Below, one piece after another: positions 44,626 to 60,954 of a stretch of 64,000 bases of DNA. A program made the position numbers and the translations under genes. Every line of letters starts with the position of its first letter. Position 1 is the first letter of the stretch. The notes below the pieces were generated by a model. That model worked only from the letters and a program-made list of their open reading frames with translations, had not been told where the DNA came from and did not search any database. Source of the DNA: Streptomyces iakyrus (GTDB lineage: Bacteria > Actinomycetota > Actinomycetes > Streptomycetales > Streptomycetaceae); the NCBI RefSeq assembly GCF_000717055.1, contig NZ_JNXI01000002.1:372001-436000 (forward strand), written 5' to 3'.

Positions 44626-44674
44626 GCCCGCGTCCCGAAGCCGCATTGTGAAGAGTTCCCAGGAGGTGACGACC

Positions 44675-45463
44675 ATGGCCACGACCCTCGCCAAGGCCGC
44701 CGACGGCACCGAGTCGGCCACGCACGCCGCCCGGATCGACCACGTGTCGAAGTCGTTCTCGGGCCCCGCCGGGCAGCAGCTCGTCCTGGACGACATCACC
44801 CTCGATGTCGCGCCCGGAGAGTTCGTCACCCTCCTGGGGGCCTCGGGCTGCGGAAAGTCCACGCTGCTCAACCTGGTGGCGGGCCTGGACCGCCCCAGCG
44901 CCGGCGAGATCGCCACGGACGGCCGTCCGGCGCTGATGTTCCAGGAGCACGCGCTGTTCCCGTGGCTGACCGCGGGCAAGAACATCGAACTCGCCCTGAA
45001 GCTGCGGGGCGTGCCCAAGGCCGAGCGCCGCGTGCGTGCCGAGGAACTGCTCGAACTGGTGCGGCTGAAGGGCGCGTACGGCAAGCGGGTCCACGAGCTG
45101 TCCGGCGGTATGCGCCAGCGTGTCGCGCTGGCGCGTGCCCTCGCGCAGGAGAGCAAGCTGCTGCTGATGGACGAGCCGTTCGCGGCGCTGGACGCCATCA
45201 CGCGGGACGTGCTGCACGACGAGCTGACCCGGATCTGGCGCGAGACGCAGGTGTCCGTCCTGTTCGTCACGCACAACGTGCGCGAGGCGGTGCGGCTCGC
45301 GCAGCGCGTGGTGCTGCTGTCCTCCCGCCCCGGGCGCATCGCGCGCGAGTGGCGGGTGGACATCCCGCACCCGCGCCGCATCGAGGACACAGCGGTGGCG
45401 GAGCTGTCCGTCGAGATCACCGAAGAACTGCGTGGGGAGATCCGCCGTCATGGCCAGCACTGA
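44675..45463 (+). CDS. ssuB: Sulfonate-type ABC transporter ATPase
   Basis: 262 residues. Walker A GASGCGKST, Q-loop LMFQEHALFPW, signature LSGGM, Walker B LLLMDEPF and H-loop VTHN are complete. It belongs to the NitT/TauT group. ATG 44675 has AGGAGGT 6 nt upstream. Overlaps the permease by 14 nt. Confidence 0.92.
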   Translation: MATTLAKAADGTESATHAARIDHVSKSFSGPAGQQLVLDDITLDVAPGEFVTLLGASGCGKSTLLNLVAGLDRPSAGEIATDGRPALMFQEHALFPWLTAGKNIELALKLRGVPKAERRVRAEELLELVRLKGAYGKRVHELSGGMRQRVALARALAQESKLLLMDEPFAALDAITRDVLHDELTRIWRETQVSVLFVTHNVREAVRLAQRVVLLSSRPGRIAREWRVDIPHPRRIEDTAVAELSVEITEELRGEIRRHGQH

Positions 45464-47194: not shown

Positions 47195-47256
47195 CGGAGA
47201 GCGACGCTGACCACTCGCCCCGGCGCCGCTTTGAAACCAGGCGCCTGGGAGGCCAC

Positions 47257-50200
47257 TTGGAGAGCGAGACCCGGCAGCCGGCAGCTCCTGACGTCACCGT
47301 GCTGTCGATCGGTGTGGGGAGCTTCGACGACGGCGCCGACCTTGAAGAACTCGGTTTCGTTGCGGGGCGGATGCGCGAGCTGGAGGAGGCCTTCGACCGG
47401 CTCGGCGCCACGGTCGGCACGTCGCTCGATCCGACGGAGATCGAGGTGGAGGCGCTCCTGCGCGGGCAGCTCGTCGACAGTCCCCCGGTTTCCGGTGTCG
47501 TGGTCGTCCATCTCATCGGGCACGGCAGGATCGACCGGGGTCACCGGCTGTCCTTCGTCGCCCGCGACAACCGCGAGGTGGACGTCGACCGGTGGATCGA
47601 GAAGGCGCAGCAGGAGATCGAGCGCGGCGGCAAGCGGCACCGTGTCGTCTTCCTCGTCGACACCTGCTCGGCCGGCGTCGCGACGGGCAGGCAACCGTTC
47701 ACCGAGATCGACGCGGACCGGGGCGTCTGGGCCCTGGGCGCCGCCGTCAGCAACTCCCCCACGGAGCAGGGCCGGTTCAGCAGCAGGATCGCCGCGGCCC
47801 TGCACCGGCTGGCGGACCTGGACCTCCACATCGACGAGGAGTCGATCGGCTTCAGCCGGTTCGTCCGCGAACTGATCCGGGTGATCCGCAGCGATCCGGC
47901 CGACCAGCGCCTCTCCCTCGGCTTCAGTGTGGAACTGGGGGACGCCGACTGGCCGTTCCTGCCGAATCCCCGTCTGGTCTCCCTGACCCCGGAGCAGCTT
48001 CAGGCCCGGCGGCGCTCGCTGGGCCACGTCCCCGGCGAGGGCGATCCCGGCCGGCGGACCGACGACACCGCCTACTTCGCCGACCGCGCCTCGGGCCGCG
48101 GCCTCGTCCCCGTAGACACCGGCACCGGCTTCTTCTCCGGCCGCACCGCGGAACTCACCCGCTATATGGAGTGGCTGTCCGGGGCAGGTCCTCTGCTGAC
48201 CGTCACGGGTGCGGCCGGTGCGGGGAAGTCAGGGCTCCTGGGGGTCATCGTGTGTGCAGCGGACCCGGGACTGCGCCGGCGCTTCCGCGAGCTGTGGGAA
48301 TCGTCCGGGCTCGACCTGCCCGAGGTGCCGGACGTCGTCGCGGTGCATGCGCGGCAGCGGTCGGCCCGGCAAGTGGTCGAAGCCATCTCGTCCGTGGTGG
48401 GGGCGCGGGGGCCGAAGCAGGCGGATGACCAGGAAGCGGGCGGCCGGGAGTGGAGCGCGCCGCCTCAGACGGCCGAAGCGCTGCGCTTCCTGCTGGACCG
48501 GGAGCAGAAGAACCGCCTCATCGTGCTCGACGCCGTGGACGAGTCCACCGAGCCGCAGGCGGTTCTCCGTCTCGTGGCCGAGCTTCTGGCACCTCGTGCA
48601 GTGGGTGGGCAGACCCTCCGCGTGCCGTGCAGGATCCTGCTGGGCGGCCGCCGGGAAGTGGTCACCGCGCTGTCGGCGCTGGAGGAGGCGGCCGACATCG
48701 ACGGCGTCCACATCGATCTGGATTCCGCTGAACCCGCCGCGGTCGAGCAGGACGTCCAGCGCTACATCCAGCGGCTCCTCGCCACCCGGGAGCCCTACGC
48801 CACGGGCGAGTCCTCTCCGTTCACCGGACTGCTCGCCAGGAAGGGCGCGGCACACATCGTGCGCGGCGGGCGACCGGACGAACCGTGGGGTCCGTTCCTG
48901 CTCGCCGGTCTGTACGTGCATTTCCTGCTGACCCTGAAGTACCCGCCCCGCGACGAGGTGGGTGCCGACATGTACGCGAAGGCGGCGTCGCCCGATCTGC
49001 CGGCGCTGCTGGAATCGATCCTGAAGACACGGCGCGACGACTACCCGCACATGCGGGCGGTGCTCGCGGTGCTGGCCCGTTCTCGCGGTGACGGCATGCC
49101 ACGCACGACCCTGAAGCGCTGCTTGCGGGCTCTGGGCGTCGACGCCCTCGACGAACGGCACTTCCAGGACACCCTGTGGGAGGCCTCGCCCTTCCTGCGG
49201 TACGGGAGCGACCCGCAGAGCGGGGAGACGCTGTACCGGCTTTTCCACCAGGGTCTGGTCGATTACCTCCACGGCCATCCGACGAGTGAGGAGCCGCTGG
49301 AGGAGGCGGGAAGCCTCGCTCTCGAAGGAAGACTGCTGTCGGAGCTCATCGGGCCGTACACGTCGGACGAGCCGGGGCAGGGCGACTCGTGGGAGGCCGC
49401 CGAGAGCGAACCGTACGCGCTGCGGCACGCGTTGGGGCATGCCGCACGGGCACGCTCCGTAGCGCACGCCGAATCCCTGCTCGCCGATCCGTACTTCCTC
49501 GTCCGGTTCGACCTCCGTGAGGACCATCGCGCTCTCGACCTCGTCCACTCGGTGCAGGCTTCGGACTTTCTGCGACTGCTCAGTGCTTCGTGGGCCACCC
49601 ACGCTCGGTTGCACGGTGCCGCCGAACGCGCGTCGGTGTTCGCCTTCGACGCCGACCGGCTGGGACTGCCGGACGCCAGGGAGCGGTTCGGCCGTATCGC
49701 GCAGGAGGTCGCCGTCCGGCCCGGGAATGCGACGTACTCGCTCCTGTGGTCACGCGGCGGTCCCGTGAACTCCAGCAGCCGCTCGGTCACGACCGCGGGC
49801 AGCGCGGTGTACGACATCGCGTTCTCCCCGGACGGCTCGCTGCTCGCTGCGACGACCAACCGCGGTGTGCAGGTGCTGGAGACGGAGACGTGGCGGTCTG
49901 TTGCACCGCTCTTCGGCAGGACGCCACCCGCCGGGGTCCACAAGGTGGCCTTCTCCCCCGACGGCCGCCTGCTCGCCTTCTCCCGGAACTCCTTCACACG
50001 AAGCGTGCAGCTGTGGGACGTGGAGAACCGCGTGCCGGCCGGGCCGCCCTGGGAGTGCAGAACCGGCATGGTACGGGCGCTCGCCTTCTCGTCCGACAGC
50101 CGATGGCTCGCGGTCGTGAGCGAGGAACTCGGCGTCTCCGTGTGGGACATCACCGGTGACTGCCCGTCCGAGGAGGCGCGGTGGGACCTCGGGGAAACGG

Positions 50201-51192
50201 ACGACTTCACCAGAGTCCGTGCTGTGGCCTTCAGCCCCAAGGGGCATCTGCTGGCAGTGTGTTCTTCCAACGGCACGACTCTCTGGGACGTCGCGGGCGG
50301 TGACCGCACACTCGTGGACGGTGAGGGGTACATCCGGTCGGTCTGCTTCTCCCCCGATGGCGGCCTCGTGGCGGTGGCGGCCCAGCGCCGCGTCGCCCTG
50401 TACTCGGTGGCCACGCGCACCCAAGTCGGCAGCGTGGATGTGCCGAATGGGAACGACCTGGCCTTCACCTGCGACGGGAGCCTGCTGGTCGTAGGCGGCT
50501 GGAGGGAGTTCCACGTCATCGACACGGCGTCGATGCACGTCGTCAACCGGTTGCCGGTCGCGGCCAGGTCGTCCTCCATCGCCATGCATCCCGACACGTC
50601 GGTCCTCGTGAGCGGTGATGAGGACGGTCATCTGCGGCTGTGGAAAAGCCTCACCGGAGAGGCGCGTCTGCCGGAGCTGCCGCGCTTCCACGAGGGCGTC
50701 GTCGGTTCACCCGACGGGCGCTTCATCGCTGTCCAGGATGTCGGCAACAGGTTGCTCAGTCTGCGGAACCCGGTCACCGGCGAGGAGATCGTCAGCTGGC
50801 CCTGGGCGGAGCCGCTGGCACATCTGGCAAGCTCGCCCGACGGTTCCCTCCTGGCCGCCAGGTCGTTGCAGCGACTGCGCGTCTTCCCGACCGACCCGGC
50901 GCTCCTGACGGACTTCAGAAGCGTCTTTCTGTCCGACGATCCTGCCTCCTTGCTGCCGCTCGTCTTCTCTCCTGACAGCAGGCTCATCGGCGTGGCCCTC
51001 GGACAGCGAGGGAACGTTCAGTTCGTCGAGGTCCGGGAGGCCCGGACCCTGGCTCTCTGCGCCAGGATCCCGGTCGCCGGGCAGCTGTCCTCGTTCGGGT
51101 TCGCCGGCCCTCAGCTCGTCTACGTCGTCGTCGACGGCGCCCTCGGCACCTACAGCTGCACTCCCCCGGACCCGGAGGCCCCGCTGCCATGA
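47257..51192 (+). CDS. Caspase-like / NACHT NTPase / WD40 protein
   Basis: A 1311-residue soluble multidomain protein. Residues 12-235: caspase-like (peptidase C14) fold with catalytic His89 (HLIGHGR) and Cys137 (LVDTCSAG). Residues about 290-600: P-loop NTPase of the NACHT/STAND type, Walker A GAAGAGKS (318-325) and Walker B LIVLDAVDE (421-429). An alpha-helical linker follows, and from about 838 to the end a WD40 propeller of about ten or eleven blades (AFSPDGSLLA and variants). By family knowledge the propeller senses a trigger, the NTPase oligomerises and the protease domain acts. TTG 47257 follows GGGAGG. Overlaps the hydrolase gene by 4 nt. Confidence 0.88.
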   Translation: MESETRQPAAPDVTVLSIGVGSFDDGADLEELGFVAGRMRELEEAFDRLGATVGTSLDPTEIEVEALLRGQLVDSPPVSGVVVVHLIGHGRIDRGHRLSFVARDNREVDVDRWIEKAQQEIERGGKRHRVVFLVDTCSAGVATGRQPFTEIDADRGVWALGAAVSNSPTEQGRFSSRIAAALHRLADLDLHIDEESIGFSRFVRELIRVIRSDPADQRLSLGFSVELGDADWPFLPNPRLVSLTPEQLQARRRSLGHVPGEGDPGRRTDDTAYFADRASGRGLVPVDTGTGFFSGRTAELTRYMEWLSGAGPLLTVTGAAGAGKSGLLGVIVCAADPGLRRRFRELWESSGLDLPEVPDVVAVHARQRSARQVVEAISSVVGARGPKQADDQEAGGREWSAPPQTAEALRFLLDREQKNRLIVLDAVDESTEPQAVLRLVAELLAPRAVGGQTLRVPCRILLGGRREVVTALSALEEAADIDGVHIDLDSAEPAAVEQDVQRYIQRLLATREPYATGESSPFTGLLARKGAAHIVRGGRPDEPWGPFLLAGLYVHFLLTLKYPPRDEVGADMYAKAASPDLPALLESILKTRRDDYPHMRAVLAVLARSRGDGMPRTTLKRCLRALGVDALDERHFQDTLWEASPFLRYGSDPQSGETLYRLFHQGLVDYLHGHPTSEEPLEEAGSLALEGRLLSELIGPYTSDEPGQGDSWEAAESEPYALRHALGHAARARSVAHAESLLADPYFLVRFDLREDHRALDLVHSVQASDFLRLLSASWATHARLHGAAERASVFAFDADRLGLPDARERFGRIAQEVAVRPGNATYSLLWSRGGPVNSSSRSVTTAGSAVYDIAFSPDGSLLAATTNRGVQVLETETWRSVAPLFGRTPPAGVHKVAFSPDGRLLAFSRNSFTRSVQLWDVENRVPAGPPWECRTGMVRALAFSSDSRWLAVVSEELGVSVWDITGDCPSEEARWDLGETDDFTRVRAVAFSPKGHLLAVCSSNGTTLWDVAGGDRTLVDGEGYIRSVCFSPDGGLVAVAAQRRVALYSVATRTQVGSVDVPNGNDLAFTCDGSLLVVGGWREFHVIDTASMHVVNRLPVAARSSSIAMHPDTSVLVSGDEDGHLRLWKSLTGEARLPELPRFHEGVVGSPDGRFIAVQDVGNRLLSLRNPVTGEEIVSWPWAEPLAHLASSPDGSLLAARSLQRLRVFPTDPALLTDFRSVFLSDDPASLLPLVFSPDSRLIGVALGQRGNVQFVEVREARTLALCARIPVAGQLSSFGFAGPQLVYVVVDGALGTYSCTPPDPEAPLP

Positions 51193-51998
51193 CCCGCCTC
51201 CTCGGCATCCACGGCGTCCGCAACTACAAAGCCGCCGACACCACCCCCGGCCTCGGCGCCAAGCGCCTGCGTGCGGACTGGCTCGAAGCGCTGGGCGACA
51301 GGGTCCCCGGGCTCGATATCGAAACGGCGTACTACGCCGACCTCCTGCGCAGTGAGCGGCAGAGTGACGAGCTGGACGACGCCGATGTGGTGCTGATCGA
51401 GCAGTGGGCGCTGGCCTGGGGGGTCGACCCGAGCGGTGTGCAGGGGCGGGCGACCGGCTGGGTCCGGTGGGTGTGCGGGCAGGTCGCTCGGCGATCCGGG
51501 CAGCGCCCGGCGGTCGTCGAGAGGACGGTCCGGATGTTCTTTCCCGAGGTGGGACGTTACTTCGCCGGCCGGCGTGCGGCGGTGCGCGAGCGGGTGCGGG
51601 ACGCACTCCTCCGGCACCGGCCCGACATCGTCGTCGCGCACTCGCTGGGCAGCGTCGTCGCCTACGAGGCCCTGCACGGACTGGCGGACGAACTGGACGT
51701 GAGGCTGCTGCTCACGCTCGGCTCGCCGCTGGCGCTCCCCCACGCGGTGTTCCACCGCCTCGACCCCGGCCCGCGCGACGGGAAGGGCACGCGGCCCGCG
51801 GTCGTGCGGCGGTGGGTGAACGTCGCCGATGCCGGGGACTTCGTGGCCATCCCCAAGGGGGAACTGGCCCGGGTGTTCACGGGTGTCGAGGAACTGCCGG
51901 AGATCAGCATCGCGCCGGCCTGGCCGCACGGCGTGCGCGACTACCTGCGCCACCGCACGGTGGCCGAAACCATCACGGCGGGCTTGCGGGCGGGGTGA
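51189..51998 (+). CDS. Alpha/beta-hydrolase paired with the NACHT protein
   Basis: 269 residues, cytoplasmic. Begins LLGIHGVRN (oxyanion region) and has the nucleophile elbow AHSLGS with Ser152; candidate acid and base are the Asp in NVADAGDF and the His in WPHGVRDY. It resembles PGAP1/lipase-like serine hydrolases. The ATG overlaps the stop of the caspase-NACHT-WD40 gene (ATGA), so the two are translated together. It may be the effector (lipase, esterase or peptidase) or a substrate of the caspase domain. It ends 3 nt from the convergent GvpL/F gene. Confidence 0.85.
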   Translation: MTRLLGIHGVRNYKAADTTPGLGAKRLRADWLEALGDRVPGLDIETAYYADLLRSERQSDELDDADVVLIEQWALAWGVDPSGVQGRATGWVRWVCGQVARRSGQRPAVVERTVRMFFPEVGRYFAGRRAAVRERVRDALLRHRPDIVVAHSLGSVVAYEALHGLADELDVRLLLTLGSPLALPHAVFHRLDPGPRDGKGTRPAVVRRWVNVADAGDFVAIPKGELARVFTGVEELPEISIAPAWPHGVRDYLRHRTVAETITAGLRAG

Positions 51999-52001
51999 CC
52001 G

Positions 52002-52829
52002 TCACGCGGCCGGTTCCTCGTGGGGTTCCGGCTGGAGCGCGAAGGAGTACGGGGCCCACGGGCCGGTGACCTCCACGCGGAGGCCGGGCACGCCCTGGGC
52101 GGCCGCCAGGATGCCCGCGCGGAAGGCGACGACTCGGTCGGCCGGGACGAGGTAGGCGTCGTTGGCGACGTTGGTGCCGGGGGCCGTGCCCGCCAGGCTG
52201 CCGCGTTCGGGGGTGTGGGCGACGCGGTCGACGGCGAGGGCGCCGGCCGTGTCGGTGAGGCGGGCGGCGGCCTGGGCGACCGTGCGCCAGGCCTCCTCGT
52301 TGCGGCGCTGTCTGCGGCGGCGGATCACCTGGTAGGCGCGGCCCACCCCGATGCCGGTGACCGGGTCCTGGACGGGCTCCGGGCCGTCCTCGGGCGGGGT
52401 GATGTCCGGGGCCGCGTAGATCTTGACGCCGAGTTCGACATGGCCCGTGAGGCGGTCGAGGAGGGAGAGGAAGTACCCGCGGCGGGTGTCGAGGGCCTGC
52501 CGGGCGCGGTCCTCGTCGCGGTAGACGGTGGCCAGGCGCAGGGGCAGTACGGCGGCGCCCGAGGCGACCAGGGCGGCCACCACGGCGTGGTGGGTACGGA
52601 CCGTCGACTCCAGCCAGTCCACGTCCGCGAGGTGCGCCTGGAGTGGAGCGTCGGCGTAGTCGGCCGGCGGGACGTGGCCCACGGCGAAGGCGAGCTGGGG
52701 GCCGCTGACGGCCGGGTCGACCAGGTGGATCGGCTCTCCGGCGACACCGCGCAGGTGGGCCGTGGCCGCCGCGGCCTCGGGGGTGCGGCGCAGGACCGCG
52801 TAGGTGTAGACGAGGTTCGTGTCGCTCAT
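52002..52829 (-). CDS. GvpL/GvpF-family gas vesicle protein
   Basis: 275 residues of the GvpL/F type (VYTYAVLRR at the start; WLESTVRTHHAVVAALVASGAAVLPLRLATVY; ELGVKIY; GVGRAYQVIRRRRQRR). In vesicle-forming bacteria such proteins join the nascent shell, but no gvpA, gvpO or other vesicle gene is seen nearby, so it may be a stray paralogue with another use. ATG 52829; divergent from the transglutaminase-like gene. Confidence 0.82.
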   Translation of the reverse strand: MSDTNLVYTYAVLRRTPEAAAATAHLRGVAGEPIHLVDPAVSGPQLAFAVGHVPPADYADAPLQAHLADVDWLESTVRTHHAVVAALVASGAAVLPLRLATVYRDEDRARQALDTRRGYFLSLLDRLTGHVELGVKIYAAPDITPPEDGPEPVQDPVTGIGVGRAYQVIRRRRQRRNEEAWRTVAQAAARLTDTAGALAVDRVAHTPERGSLAGTAPGTNVANDAYLVPADRVVAFRAGILAAAQGVPGLRVEVTGPWAPYSFALQPEPHEEPAA

Positions 52830-57946: not shown

Positions 57947-58897
57947 ATGTCCGATGCGCAGGCATTCCATCGCGCCACCTCGCCCGACTACAGCCGCTGG
58001 TGCGGCGCCATGGAGGTGCACCGCAGACTCCTCACCCTGAACCCGGAGTACGCCGAGAACCGGGCCCTGATCGAGAACACCGCCTTCGCCTACGAGTCGA
58101 TGGACCAGGTCACCGCCCGCCAGGGCCTCATCGACATCCCCGTCGTGGTGCACGTCGTGCACAACACCCCCGAGCAGAACGTGAGCGACGCCCAGATCCA
58201 GAGTCAGATCGACGTGCTCAACCAGGACTTCCGCGCGGGCAACCCCGACGTGAGCAAGGTGCCGGCGGTCTGGCAGGACCTCGTCGCCGACGCCCGCCTC
58301 CAGTTCCACCTCGCCCGGACCGACCCGCTGGGCCGCCCCACGGACGGCATCACGCGGACCCGGACCACGAACACGGGCTGGGACACCGACGACCTGGTCA
58401 AGTTCAGCCTGAGCGGCGGTCAGGACGCCTGGCCGGCGGACATCTACCTGAACCTCTGGGTCTGCCAGCTGCGCCGCGGACTGCTGGGCTACGCCCAGTT
58501 CCCGGGCGGCGCCGCCTCCACGGACGGCGTGGTCGTCACGCACACCGCCCTCGGGACCACCGGCACCGCCACGGCTCCCTTCGACGGCGGCCGCACGGCC
58601 GTGCACGAGATCGGGCACTGGCTGAACCTGCGGCACATCTGGGGCGACGACGACGAGGGGTGCAGTGGCAGTGACTTCGTCGCGGACACCCCCAACCAGG
58701 CAGGCGCGAACGTCGGTTCGCCCACCTTCCCCCATGTGACGTGCAGCAACGGGCCCGACGGCGACATGTTCATGAACTACATGGACTACACCGACGACGC
58801 CGCGATGTTCATGTTCACCAAGGGCCAGTCGGCGCGGATGGACGCCACGCTCGACAACGCCCGCCTGACCCTCACCCGCCAGGCCGTCGCGGTGTGA
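57947..58897 (+). CDS. Pappalysin-like (M43) zinc metalloprotease
   Basis: 316 residues. The zinc site is [11 protein letters not shown] (His220, Glu221, His224, His230) with the metzincin Met-turn MNYMDY about 45 residues later. [24 protein letters not shown] pattern in the N-terminal part is typical of the family. Most relatives are secreted, yet no signal peptide is seen before the catalytic domain, so export or cellular site is unclear. AGGGG lies before the ATG. Confidence 0.87.
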
Positions 58898-58923: not shown

Positions 58924-60126
58924 TCAGGGCCTGCGTGCGGCCAGTTCGGCCTCGATGAGGTCGGCGGCCCGCCGCGTGCCGCCCTCCTCGGCGGTCTGCG
59001 CCTGGAGTTGCTTCAGCCGGCGGGCCACCTCGGGGTCGCCGGTCAGGGCGAGGGCGGCCGCGCGCAGGGTCTCGCCGGTCGCCTCCTCCGTGGGCAGGTA
59101 CCGGGCGACGCCCAGGCCCTGGAGCATCTCCGCGTTGCCGAACTGGTCCACGGCCTGCGGTACAGCGATCATCGGTGTGGCGGTGGCGAGGCCCTCCTGG
59201 CTGCCGCCGGCGCCCGCGTGCGTGACGAACAGGTCGGCCTGCTTCAGGATCGCCAACTGTGGTACCCAGGGGCGCACCTCGACGTTGCCCGGGACGTCCG
59301 CGAAGCCGGCCGGGTCGACGTGCTTGCCGACCGAGAGCACCAGGTGCCAGCCGGGCAGGTCGCCGAACGCCGCGACGCACTCCCGGTAGAAGCCGGGCCG
59401 CTTGGTGAAGGCCGACCCGAGGGACACGAGCGCGACCTTCTCCGCTCCGGCCGGCCGCTGCCAGTCGCCCTCGGCGGTGCGGCCGCCCTGGCAGGCGCCG
59501 ACGAAGGAGTACACGCGCTCGTCGACGCGGTCCGCGTTCGGCTGGAGCGCCTTGGGGAGCAGGACGATCGAGCGGTCGGGCCGGCCGGCGAAGTCGTCGG
59601 GGTCCAGGGTGATCCCGTTCTCCTCCAGCCAGGCGTGGAACCGGGCGTAGTAGGCGCGTCCCCGCTCGGTCTTCTTCGGCTCCTCCCACATCGGCCGGGC
59701 GACCTCCTCCTCGTACCCCTCCCAGGCGACCATGGCCGGCGAGAGGGAGACCGCGGGAACGCCCCAGCGGTGGGCGAGGACCCGGCCCGGGTAGGAGGCG
59801 ATGTCGTGCAGGACGAGGTCCGGCTCGTCGCCCCCGTAGGCCTCGATCAGCTGCGGGAGAGCCTGGATCGCGTCGTCGAGGAACGGCTCCACGTTGTCCA
59901 GCAGCGTGTCCCCCCACGCCTCCGGGTCGTCGTCGGGTGAGGGCAGCGTGGACGTCCAGGGCTTCACCTCGGCTCCGGTGCCCGCGACCTTGTCCGCGAA
60001 GACGGGCGGGACGGCGTAGGTCACCCGGTGGCCGCGCGCCACGAGCTCGCGGATCACCTCCAGGCTGGGGTTCACGTGGCCGTGGGCGGCGATGGAGAAC
60101 ATGGCGATGTGCGCGCGACTGGTCAT
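58924..60126 (-). CDS. mgt: Macrolide glycosyltransferase (MGT/OleD type)
   Basis: Adds glucose from UDP-glucose to the desosamine-bearing face of macrolides, inactivating them. 400 residues, GT1 family, GT-B fold. Begins [19 protein letters not shown] with the catalytic-base His in AAHGHVNP. The C-terminal donor site is [13 protein letters not shown] followed by [12 protein letters not shown]. It lies 48 nt downstream of an Erm-type methyltransferase on the same strand, the same pairing as lrm-mgt of S. lividans, where both give inducible macrolide-lincosamide resistance. Confidence 0.92.
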
Positions 60127-60174
60127 GCGCCCGACCGTACGCGAGACGAGACGTCTCGTGCAACCTCTTGGTGT

Positions 60175-60954
60175 TCACGAGGTCAGGACCTCGTGCAGAC
60201 GCAGCCAGGTCGCCGGGGCCACCTCGCCCACCAGCACGCCCGGGTCCAGCCGTGCCACCCGGAACGCCGCGTCCACCCGACGCCTCGGATGGGCCCTGCG
60301 CAACGAGGCGTACAGTGAGCCGCCCACCCCGGAGAAGCCCAGCTCGACGAGGGACCGCCAGCTGCGGCAGGCGCCGTCGTCGAGCAGCGGGATCCCGCGC
60401 CGCTCCAGGCGGAGCACACCGGCGTCCACGCGCGGCACCGGCCGGAAGCTGCGCCGGCCGACCCGGCCGAGCAGCCGCCACTCGAAGCGGGGCCAGCTCC
60501 GGACCGTCAGCAGCGTCCAGCTGCCGTAGTCCCCGGTGCGTTTGCGGGCGTACTCGAGCTGGGTGAGCAGGGTGGCGTCGGTGAGGGCGGAGGCGCGCAG
60601 ACACCAGTCGACGACGTCCGCGGTCCGGGAGAACGGCACGTTCCCGGCGACGGAGAAGGCCGTACGGGGCGGACGCGCGGCCAGGAAATCCCCCTCGACG
60701 ACCCGCACCCGCGGGGTGCCGGAGAACCGGGCGCGCAGCACGGACACGAGCCGCGGGTCGATTTCGTAGGCGCGCAGCTCCCGGCAGCGCGCGGCCAGCG
60801 GGGCGGTCAACGCCCCCTTGCCCGCGCCGACTTCGAGCAGCAGCGGGACGGATCCGGACCGTGGGACGGCGAGCCGGGCGAAGCGCTCCGCGGCGGCACG
60901 GTCGGCGAGGAAGTTCTGCGAGAGGGCGCGGGACAGCGTGGTGGGGCGGGCCAT
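60175..60954 (-). CDS. lrm: 23S rRNA adenine N6-methyltransferase, Erm family (Lrm-like)
   Basis: Methylates A2058 of 23S rRNA and so blocks macrolide-lincosamide binding. 259 residues. Erm motifs: LSQNFLADRAAAERF, SAM-binding EVGAGKGALT, acidic AYEIDPRL, GDFLA and the catalytic GNVPFSRT. The C-terminal domain is short and Arg-rich. The start ATG follows AAGGACC. A 10-bp stem ends right before that ribosome binding site, and a small leader frame lies upstream, both fitting inducible expression. Followed by the macrolide glycosyltransferase. Confidence 0.92.
   Translation of the reverse strand: MARPTTLSRALSQNFLADRAAAERFARLAVPRSGSVPLLLEVGAGKGALTAPLAARCRELRAYEIDPRLVSVLRARFSGTPRVRVVEGDFLAARPPRTAFSVAGNVPFSRTADVVDWCLRASALTDATLLTQLEYARKRTGDYGSWTLLTVRSWPRFEWRLLGRVGRRSFRPVPRVDAGVLRLERRGIPLLDDGACRSWRSLVELGFSGVGGSLYASLRRAHPRRRVDAAFRVARLDPGVLVGEVAPATWLRLHEVLTS

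What the first reader, a model, noticed from the sequence alone, without database searches (positions are those of the whole stretch)
47257..51998. Two-gene caspase-NACHT-WD40 plus alpha/beta-hydrolase module, a candidate conflict system
One protein joins an intact caspase-like dyad (His89, Cys137), a NACHT/STAND NTPase with Walker A and B, and a WD40 propeller of about ten or eleven blades, and its stop overlaps the start of a serine hydrolase gene. This is the plan of bacterial NLR-like conflict systems: sensor repeats, an oligomerising switch, a protease. The translational overlap with a lipase/esterase-like protein suggests a second effector or a proenzyme cut by the caspase domain. I do not know this exact pair as a characterised system.
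Basis: partly seen in the sequence, partly recalled or inferred. Interest (0 to 1): 0.88.

Follow-up and report, generated by a model that had tools for sequence, protein, structure and literature searches.

The report
Bacterial caspase-NLR paired with a lipase-like enzyme
A soil bacterium carries a two-gene unit in which one protein fuses a caspase-like protease to a cell-death-receptor-like switch and sensor, and the overlapping second gene makes a lipase-like enzyme; most relatives found keep the two together, so it looks like a suicide or defence device in which protease and lipase act as a pair, which has not yet been tested.

Summary
Gene A (47257-51192) has an intact caspase dyad, a STAND NTPase and about 11 WD40 blades; gene B (51189-51998) is an alpha/beta-hydrolase with a Ser152-Asp217-His247 triad; they overlap by ATGA. 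The pairing is not chance: in 61 genomes of the genus, 29 of 35 strong hydrolase hits lie within 6 kb of a caspase domain, against roughly 0.4% expected. Over 71 loci with both genes, caspase His/Cys and hydrolase Ser are kept in 71/71, and the two diverge in step (Mantel r 0.88). The same hydrolase family serves STAND hubs (49 of 71) and VMAP hubs (15 of 71, one clade). The STAND-propeller part matches Apaf-1 best by Foldseek. Of nine caspase loci without this hydrolase that I looked at, two have an LCAT-type lipase gene beside the caspase, pointing to acyl-lipid chemistry. Metacaspase-NACHT-WD40 proteins (2012) and caspase/hydrolase neighbours in VMAP systems (Kaur 2020) were known; the STAND form is a new variant. 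Best reading: an apoptosome-like hub whose caspase works with, and perhaps switches on, a lipase effector. Defence, cleavage and substrate are untested.

The parts
47257..51192 (+). Gene A: caspase - STAND NTPase - helical region - WD40 propeller protein, 1311 aa (TTG start, GGGAGG at 47247-47252)
47299..47991 (+). Caspase-like domain (residues 15-245); His89 codon 47521-47523, Cys137 codon 47665-47667
   Evidence: NF047832 E 1.3e-6, below cut-off; His and Cys 71/71 across loci
48004..48060 (+). Caspase-STAND linker (residues 250-268) with conserved R-R-S-L-G-[YH]-V-P-G-E; low model confidence; candidate autocleavage or hinge segment (inference)
   Evidence: R252 52/57, R253 50/57, S254 57/57, G260 57/57; pLDDT 32-39 but at the cut end of the model
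48112..48756 (+). STAND NTPase (residues 286-500), Walker-A Lys324 codon 48226-48228
   Evidence: NPHP3_N / AAA_16 / nSTAND1; K324 57/57; Walker B invariant
48757..49770 (+). Helical region between NTPase and propeller (residues 501-838), HD/WHD-like by position and by the Apaf-1 match
49771..50646 (+). Seven-bladed WD40 propeller (residues 839-1130)
50647..51189 (+). About four further blades (residues 1131-1311), the least conserved part in 4 of 4 orthologue comparisons
51189..51998 (+). Gene B: alpha/beta-hydrolase, 269 aa, starts inside the stop of gene A (ATGA); GGAGG at 51174-51178
51336..51623 (+). Helical cap of gene B (residues 50-145) between strand 42-47 and the nucleophile elbow; loop 81-94 (51429-51470) holds Gly86, invariant in 117 sequences; candidate gating segment
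   Evidence: gating is inference
51642..51644 (+). Ser152 nucleophile codon (AHSLGS); Asp217 codon 51837-51839; His247 codon 51927-51929

Best explanation
A two-gene hub-and-effector system. The WD40 propeller of gene A holds the protein off until it meets a trigger (inferred: an invader or damage signal). The STAND NTPase then exchanges nucleotide and assembles an apoptosome-like oligomer (inferred from the Apaf-1-like anatomy). This brings the fused caspase domains together and makes them active. The caspase works with the co-translated hydrolase, most likely by cutting or otherwise releasing a gated form of it, and the hydrolase then deacylates lipids of the cell's own membrane, ending in death or arrest. 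Shown here: the domains, the conserved active sites, the overlapping genes, the co-inheritance, and an LCAT-type lipase in place of the hydrolase in two loci. Inferred: trigger, oligomerisation, proteolytic activation, lipid substrate, outcome.
Against: No functional data. PADLOC gives only a weak match of gene A to HEAT-ARM_XIII (E 1.6e-4, in the repeat part) and none for gene B. No cut site is conserved across the hydrolase family: Gly86 is 117/117 in the near half but 46/63 in the wider set. The locus sits at one chromosomal site in orthologues, and of ten neighbours only an ATPase-like gene and one weak hit match PADLOC models. Of nine caspase loci without this hydrolase, four show no such enzyme beside the caspase (L141, L142, L143, L145). 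Six of 35 strong hydrolase hits have no caspase nearby. Fold similarity gives no substrate.
Confidence: 0.5

Rival explanations
1. The hydrolase is a parallel effector that joins the complex but is not a caspase substrate; the caspase cuts other host or invader proteins.
For: The hydrolase model is compact and confident (mean pLDDT 93.4, no residue under 50), with no long disordered plug; no cut site is conserved across the family.
Against: Strict retention of the protease active site with the hydrolase, and divergence in step; protease-activated partners are a known theme.
Confidence: 0.2
2. A developmental or stress-triggered cell-death unit of Streptomyces, not an anti-invader system.
For: In L017-L020 the pair follows the same CbiX gene (86-98% identical) as in the window, at one chromosomal site; no relative of the hydrolase in 50,697 phage records or among 18 pattern matches in viral contigs; no clear defence gene among ten neighbours.
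Against: Relatives lie on plasmids, at least three beside transposase or integrase genes, and reach a cyanobacterium; the propeller is less conserved than the rest; one strain keeps only a scar, so the unit can be lost.
Confidence: 0.2
3. The hydrolase restrains or resets the caspase, as an antidote.
For: Overlapping genes and constant pairing would fit a toxin-antidote pair.
Against: Close caspase-STAND relatives exist with no gene of this hydrolase family beside them (L141, L142, L143), and hydrolases exist without a caspase (7 of 78 loci); the nucleophile is kept in 71/71.
Confidence: 0.08

Closest known systems
Caspase plus alpha/beta-hydrolase pairing in VMAP (vWA-MoxR) conflict systems, Kaur et al. 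2020 (PMC7159879, passages)
   Same: A caspase-superfamily domain with a neighbouring alpha/beta-hydrolase gene; 15 of 71 loci here are labelled VMAP and carry the same hydrolase family (4 of the 15 confirmed by Pfam VMAP-M2)
   Different: Here the hub is a STAND-WD40 protein without VMAP, MoxR or vWA; the VMAP-linked hydrolases form their own clade
Metacaspase-NACHT-WD40 proteins, Asplund-Samuelsson et al. 2012 (PMC3501461, passages)
   Same: Domain plan of gene A; the paper also names one metacaspase fused to GDSL-lipase and amidase domains
   Different: The passages read mention no separate alpha/beta-hydrolase gene beside the NACHT-WD40 form
EACC1 two-gene systems (Kaur et al. 2020, section 33 read)
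   Same: Related caspase domain; the caspase gene may carry STAND domains
   Different: No EACC1 gene near gene A; the genome's only PF19953 match lies on another contig beside another caspase
canu and Hachiman/AVAST protease - pro-nuclease pairs, Tuck et al. 2025 (PMC12799240, abstract, passages, Discussion)
   Same: A protease fused or linked to a defence hub and a separately encoded enzyme that co-evolves with it
   Different: The partner here is an alpha/beta-hydrolase, not an MBL-fold nuclease; no proteolysis shown
Apaf-1 apoptosome
   Same: STAND NTPase, helical domains and WD40 propellers; best Foldseek match
   Different: The caspase is fused in place of the CARD (recalled), and there is one full propeller plus about four blades

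Membership tests
Caspase/alpha-beta-hydrolase pair (Kaur 2020 theme) | Caspase domain with a neighbouring alpha/beta-hydrolase gene | tested here: met
VMAP ternary system | VMAP, MoxR and vWA components | tested here: not met
   First 450 residues match no VMAP model; direct neighbours are CbiX and GvpL/GvpF
EACC1 two-gene system | 5' gene encoding EACC1 next to the caspase gene | tested here: not met
   The upstream gene is CbiX; the genome's only PF19953 match is on contig C41
EACC1 two-gene system | EACC1-associated caspase above the NF047832 cut-off | tested here: not met
   28 bits against a cut-off of 140
Bacterial NLR-like (antiviral STAND) protein | N-terminal effector, central STAND NTPase, C-terminal repeat sensor | tested here: met
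Bacterial NLR-like (antiviral STAND) protein | Protects against phage | not testable with these tools
   Only a weak PADLOC match, HEAT-ARM_XIII E 1.6e-4
canu-type protease/pro-enzyme system | Partner is an MBL-fold nuclease | tested here: not met
   Partner has an alpha/beta-hydrolase fold
canu-type protease/pro-enzyme system | Partner is activated by the protease | not testable with these tools
   Co-divergence only
Alpha/beta-hydrolase superfamily | Ser-Asp/Glu-His triad on the hydrolase fold | tested here: met
Apaf-1-like STAND protein | NTPase, helical domains and WD40 propellers in this order | tested here: met

The most novel reading that the evidence does not exclude
The caspase of an apoptosome-like bacterial hub proteolytically opens a gated phospholipase, giving a caspase-lipase death pathway that parallels caspase-gasdermin, and this caspase-lipase cassette has been taken up by unrelated hubs (STAND-WD40, STAND-TPR, VMAP), with the lipase exchangeable between families.
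Probability: 0.3. Interest if true: 0.82.

Novelty: new variant of a known kind. Interest (0 to 1): 0.6.

Why it matters
Tuck et al. [quoted passage not shown] This pair meets the first hallmark strongly and offers a candidate for the second. It would add lipases to the enzymes that bacterial caspases control and makes a two-gene, apoptosome-like pathway testable in Streptomyces or E. coli.

Tried and rejected
EACC1 system: rejected, no EACC1 gene near. VMAP system: rejected. Phage or prophage origin: no match in phage records; 18 pattern matches in viral contigs, none a relative. A family-wide cut site in the hydrolase cap: not found. PDB sequence search with the hydrolase: one match at E 0.25. 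Foldseek with the hydrolase gave weak E-values (best 7.4e-4); the fold assignment rests on VIA-align and the triad. Antidote role: made unlikely by caspase-STAND genes without the hydrolase. Defence island: PADLOC on ten neighbours gave matches only for the gene at 44648-45463 (five models, best mad3 E 8e-28, probably as a generic ATPase) and weakly for 57947-58897; flanks of the other loci were not scanned.

Limits of the counts. The 78 loci are 1 own copy (L015), 4 orthologues (L017-L020), 40 mostly best-scoring hits (two of them own; two re-fetched longer as L091, L092), 13 of 15 matching plasmid records (H3 and H14 not fetched) and 20 more; the window is not one of them. The caspase model was built from 37 hydrolase-linked proteins, so those match by construction; 16 of the 29 positive loci are among them and 13 are not. 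Curated models are independent: NF047832 34 of 37, PF00656 23 of 37 at E 0.01. L058 has a WD40-like gene between caspase and hydrolase. L086 (same sequence as L021) is a remnant and counts as neither. One search lists 45 rows: I split them into 35 strong (E 2.2e-28 or better; one, in G035, carries a stop, one, in G046, is partial), 9 weaker (4 of 9 near a caspase), and dropped the second piece of the G035 gene. The list was cut, so '33 of 150 caspases with a hydrolase' concerns the listed ones only; the 0.4% expectation is a rough sum with an assumed genome size. One search leaves out L017 and the 8 loci that lack one gene. In one search the VMAP and STAND labels come from my own models; the STAND label needs 4 changes on the tree, not 1. 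In one search the hydrolase of L017 gives w 0.63 on a dS of only 0.08. Of the nine hydrolase-lacking caspase loci fetched (L141-L145, L150-L153), L151 showed no caspase among the called genes and says nothing.

Full report
What is there. Window 47257-51192 encodes a 1311-aa protein and 51189-51998 a 269-aa protein; the stop of the first and the start of the second share ATGA, and each start has a purine-rich ribosome-binding site. The window lies in a 9.13-Mb genome whose named relatives are Streptomyces. The first protein holds a caspase-like domain (NF047832 E 1.3e-6, below its cut-off), a STAND-type NTPase (NPHP3_N above cut-off; AAA_16 and nSTAND1 below) and WD40 repeats. The second is a weak match to alpha/beta-hydrolase families (Abhydrolase_6 E 0.004, PGAP1 E 0.013; its best Pfam match, Glyco_transf_4 E 9e-4, is below cut-off too).

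Active sites. In an alignment of the first 450 residues of 37 partner proteins of the hydrolase family (the window's own included), His89, Gly90, Asp135 and Cys137 are invariant. In the window and 56 close orthologues Cys137 and Lys324 are 57/57 and His89 is 56/57 with one gap. In the hydrolase, Ser152, Asp217 and His247 are invariant in 63 sequences and in 117. Across 71 loci with both genes: His 71/71, Cys 71/71, Ser 71/71, Asp and His 70/71, the exception being a split gene in L096.

Is the pair real? The own genome has five strong members of the hydrolase family. Four (the window pair, C17, C47, C27) lie beside a gene that NF047832, an independent curated model, matches as a caspase (E 2.7e-7 to 5e-19, all below its cut-off); the fifth is the C-terminal part of a Trypsin_2 protein. 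The genome has eight NF047832 matches in all, so four caspase matches have no hydrolase of this family beside them. Of 78 scanned loci, 70 have hydrolase and caspase in one stretch, 7 have a hydrolase alone and 1 is a remnant. By hand count from that table, 44 of the 70 are hydrolase-first, 20 caspase-first, 4 convergent and 2 divergent. In 61 genomes of the genus searched with the hydrolase model and with a caspase model, 29 of 35 strong hydrolase hits have a caspase domain within 6 kb; 13 of these 29 were not used to build the caspase model; the six without are the six weakest of the 35; the rough chance expectation is 0.4%. Conversely 33 of the 150 listed caspases have the hydrolase, 17 of the top 20, but that ranking favours hydrolase-linked caspases because the model was built from them. 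Distances of caspase and hydrolase correlate at r 0.876 over 71 loci, 0 of 2000 permutations as high; physical linkage contributes to this. Genes overlap by 4 nt in 21 of 43 loci.

Range. Among plasmid records 15 match; of 13 fetched, 11 have a caspase gene near the hydrolase, including a cyanobacterium (Leptolyngbya, L095), Rhodococcus (L098), Nonomuraea (L097) and Arthrobacter (L096). In 296 genomes of the phylum 8 match at 1e-10, 4 of them of the same genus; of the other four, L108 and L110 have a caspase, L109 and L111 do not. No match in 50,697 phage records. The protein search for residues 1-800 of gene A found 65 relatives among the 7990 candidates scored; every row whose name gives an organism is Streptomyces.

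Variants. By labels from my own domain models, 49 of 71 partner proteins are STAND, 15 VMAP and 7 other; the VMAP-linked hydrolases form one clade (100/100), while the STAND label needs four changes. L052, L054 and L090 carry the same parts as three genes, with WD40 on its own gene. I fetched nine caspase loci without this hydrolase: two have LCAT-family genes beside the caspase gene (L144, PF02450 E 2.3e-14, 18 bp from a caspase-STAND-WD40 gene; L152, E 9.6e-9, overlapping a caspase-STAND-TPR gene); two have EACC1 genes (L150, L153); L141 has a GT4-conflict domain fused to the caspase-STAND protein; L142, L143 and L145 show none of these; L151 was uninformative. Exchangeable partners fit the hydrolase as an effector, and LCAT points to acyl-lipid chemistry; both are inference.

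Evolution. In L017-L020 the pair follows a CbiX gene 86-98% identical to the window's, and in L017 also precedes the same GvpL/GvpF gene. Identity to the window falls from caspase and hydrolase to the last blades: for L018, caspase 0.74, hydrolase 0.80, propeller 0.47, last blades 0.41; dN/dS is below 1 in all 28 comparisons (0.00 for the 40-residue linker of L017, otherwise 0.17-0.63). S. cahuitamycinicus (L021; L086 is the same sequence) keeps only a scar between the same neighbours.

How it may work. Sensor propeller, nucleotide switch, oligomer, caspase activation, then action of the hydrolase on membrane lipids. The linker between caspase and NTPase (RRSLG[YH]VPGE) is conserved although it is modelled with low confidence, which may be due to the cut end of the model; it is a candidate for self-cleavage. 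In the hydrolase a helical cap of about 95 residues precedes the nucleophile; its least certain loop holds Gly86, 117/117 in the near half of the family and 46/63 in the wider set. Tuck et al. report gating insertions with conserved glycines in the caspase-activated CanC nuclease (PMC12799240, abstract, passages and Discussion); the parallel is suggestive only.

What is known. Kaur et al. 2020 (PMC7159879, passages and section 33) state for VMAP systems that whenever there is a caspase domain there is always a neighbouring alpha/beta-hydrolase gene, and mention a related hydrolase among effectors of GAP1-N1 systems; Kaur et al. 2021 (PMC8195603, passages) list alpha/beta-hydrolase as hydrolysing membrane lipids. 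Asplund-Samuelsson et al. 2012 (PMC3501461, passages) call Metacaspase-NACHT-WD40 widely distributed and describe one metacaspase fused to a GDSL lipase and an amidase. Tuck et al. (Discussion) note that caspase homologues with known antiphage roles include NLR systems, citing a paper I did not read. I saw no description of a caspase-STAND-WD40 plus hydrolase pair in the listings of searches; supplementary files were not read. Trigger, activation, substrate and outcome remain untested.

Noticed in passing
window 58924-60954 (-): A macrolide-type glycosyltransferase gene (EryCIII-like_C/UDPGT) beside an rRNA adenine dimethylase gene (RrnaAD), as in self-resistance pairs (that reading is recalled; domains).
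   Followed up: no
window 52002-52829 (-): GvpL/GvpF gas-vesicle gene directly downstream of the pair.
   Followed up: no
L144:9193-10518 and L152:7683-9104: LCAT-family lipase genes beside caspase-STAND genes that lack the usual hydrolase.
   Followed up: partly
L141:5300-8689: Caspase-STAND protein fused to a GT4-conflict glycosyltransferase domain.
   Followed up: no
L146-L149: Small caspases (366-384 aa) beside genes that match the hydrolase model weakly (386-391 aa in L146 and L149, shorter calls in L147 and L148), with 4-nt overlaps in L146, L147 and L149.
   Followed up: partly
L089:1714-3783 (own genome C16): Trypsin_2 protease fused to a C-terminal domain related to the hydrolase.
   Followed up: partly
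L021 and L086: S. cahuitamycinicus keeps only a short piece of the caspase and the tail of the hydrolase between the same neighbours.
   Followed up: partly
L138:5175-8036 (own genome C41): An EACC1 gene followed by a caspase with a solute-binding domain, in the same genome.
   Followed up: no
L136:4011-7891 (own genome C27): A caspase gene with NACHT (weak) and TPR domains, divergent from a hydrolase-family gene.
   Followed up: partly
L017:14641-16458 (-): A second, separate caspase reading frame (605 aa) about 5 kb downstream of the pair in S. tibetensis.
   Followed up: no
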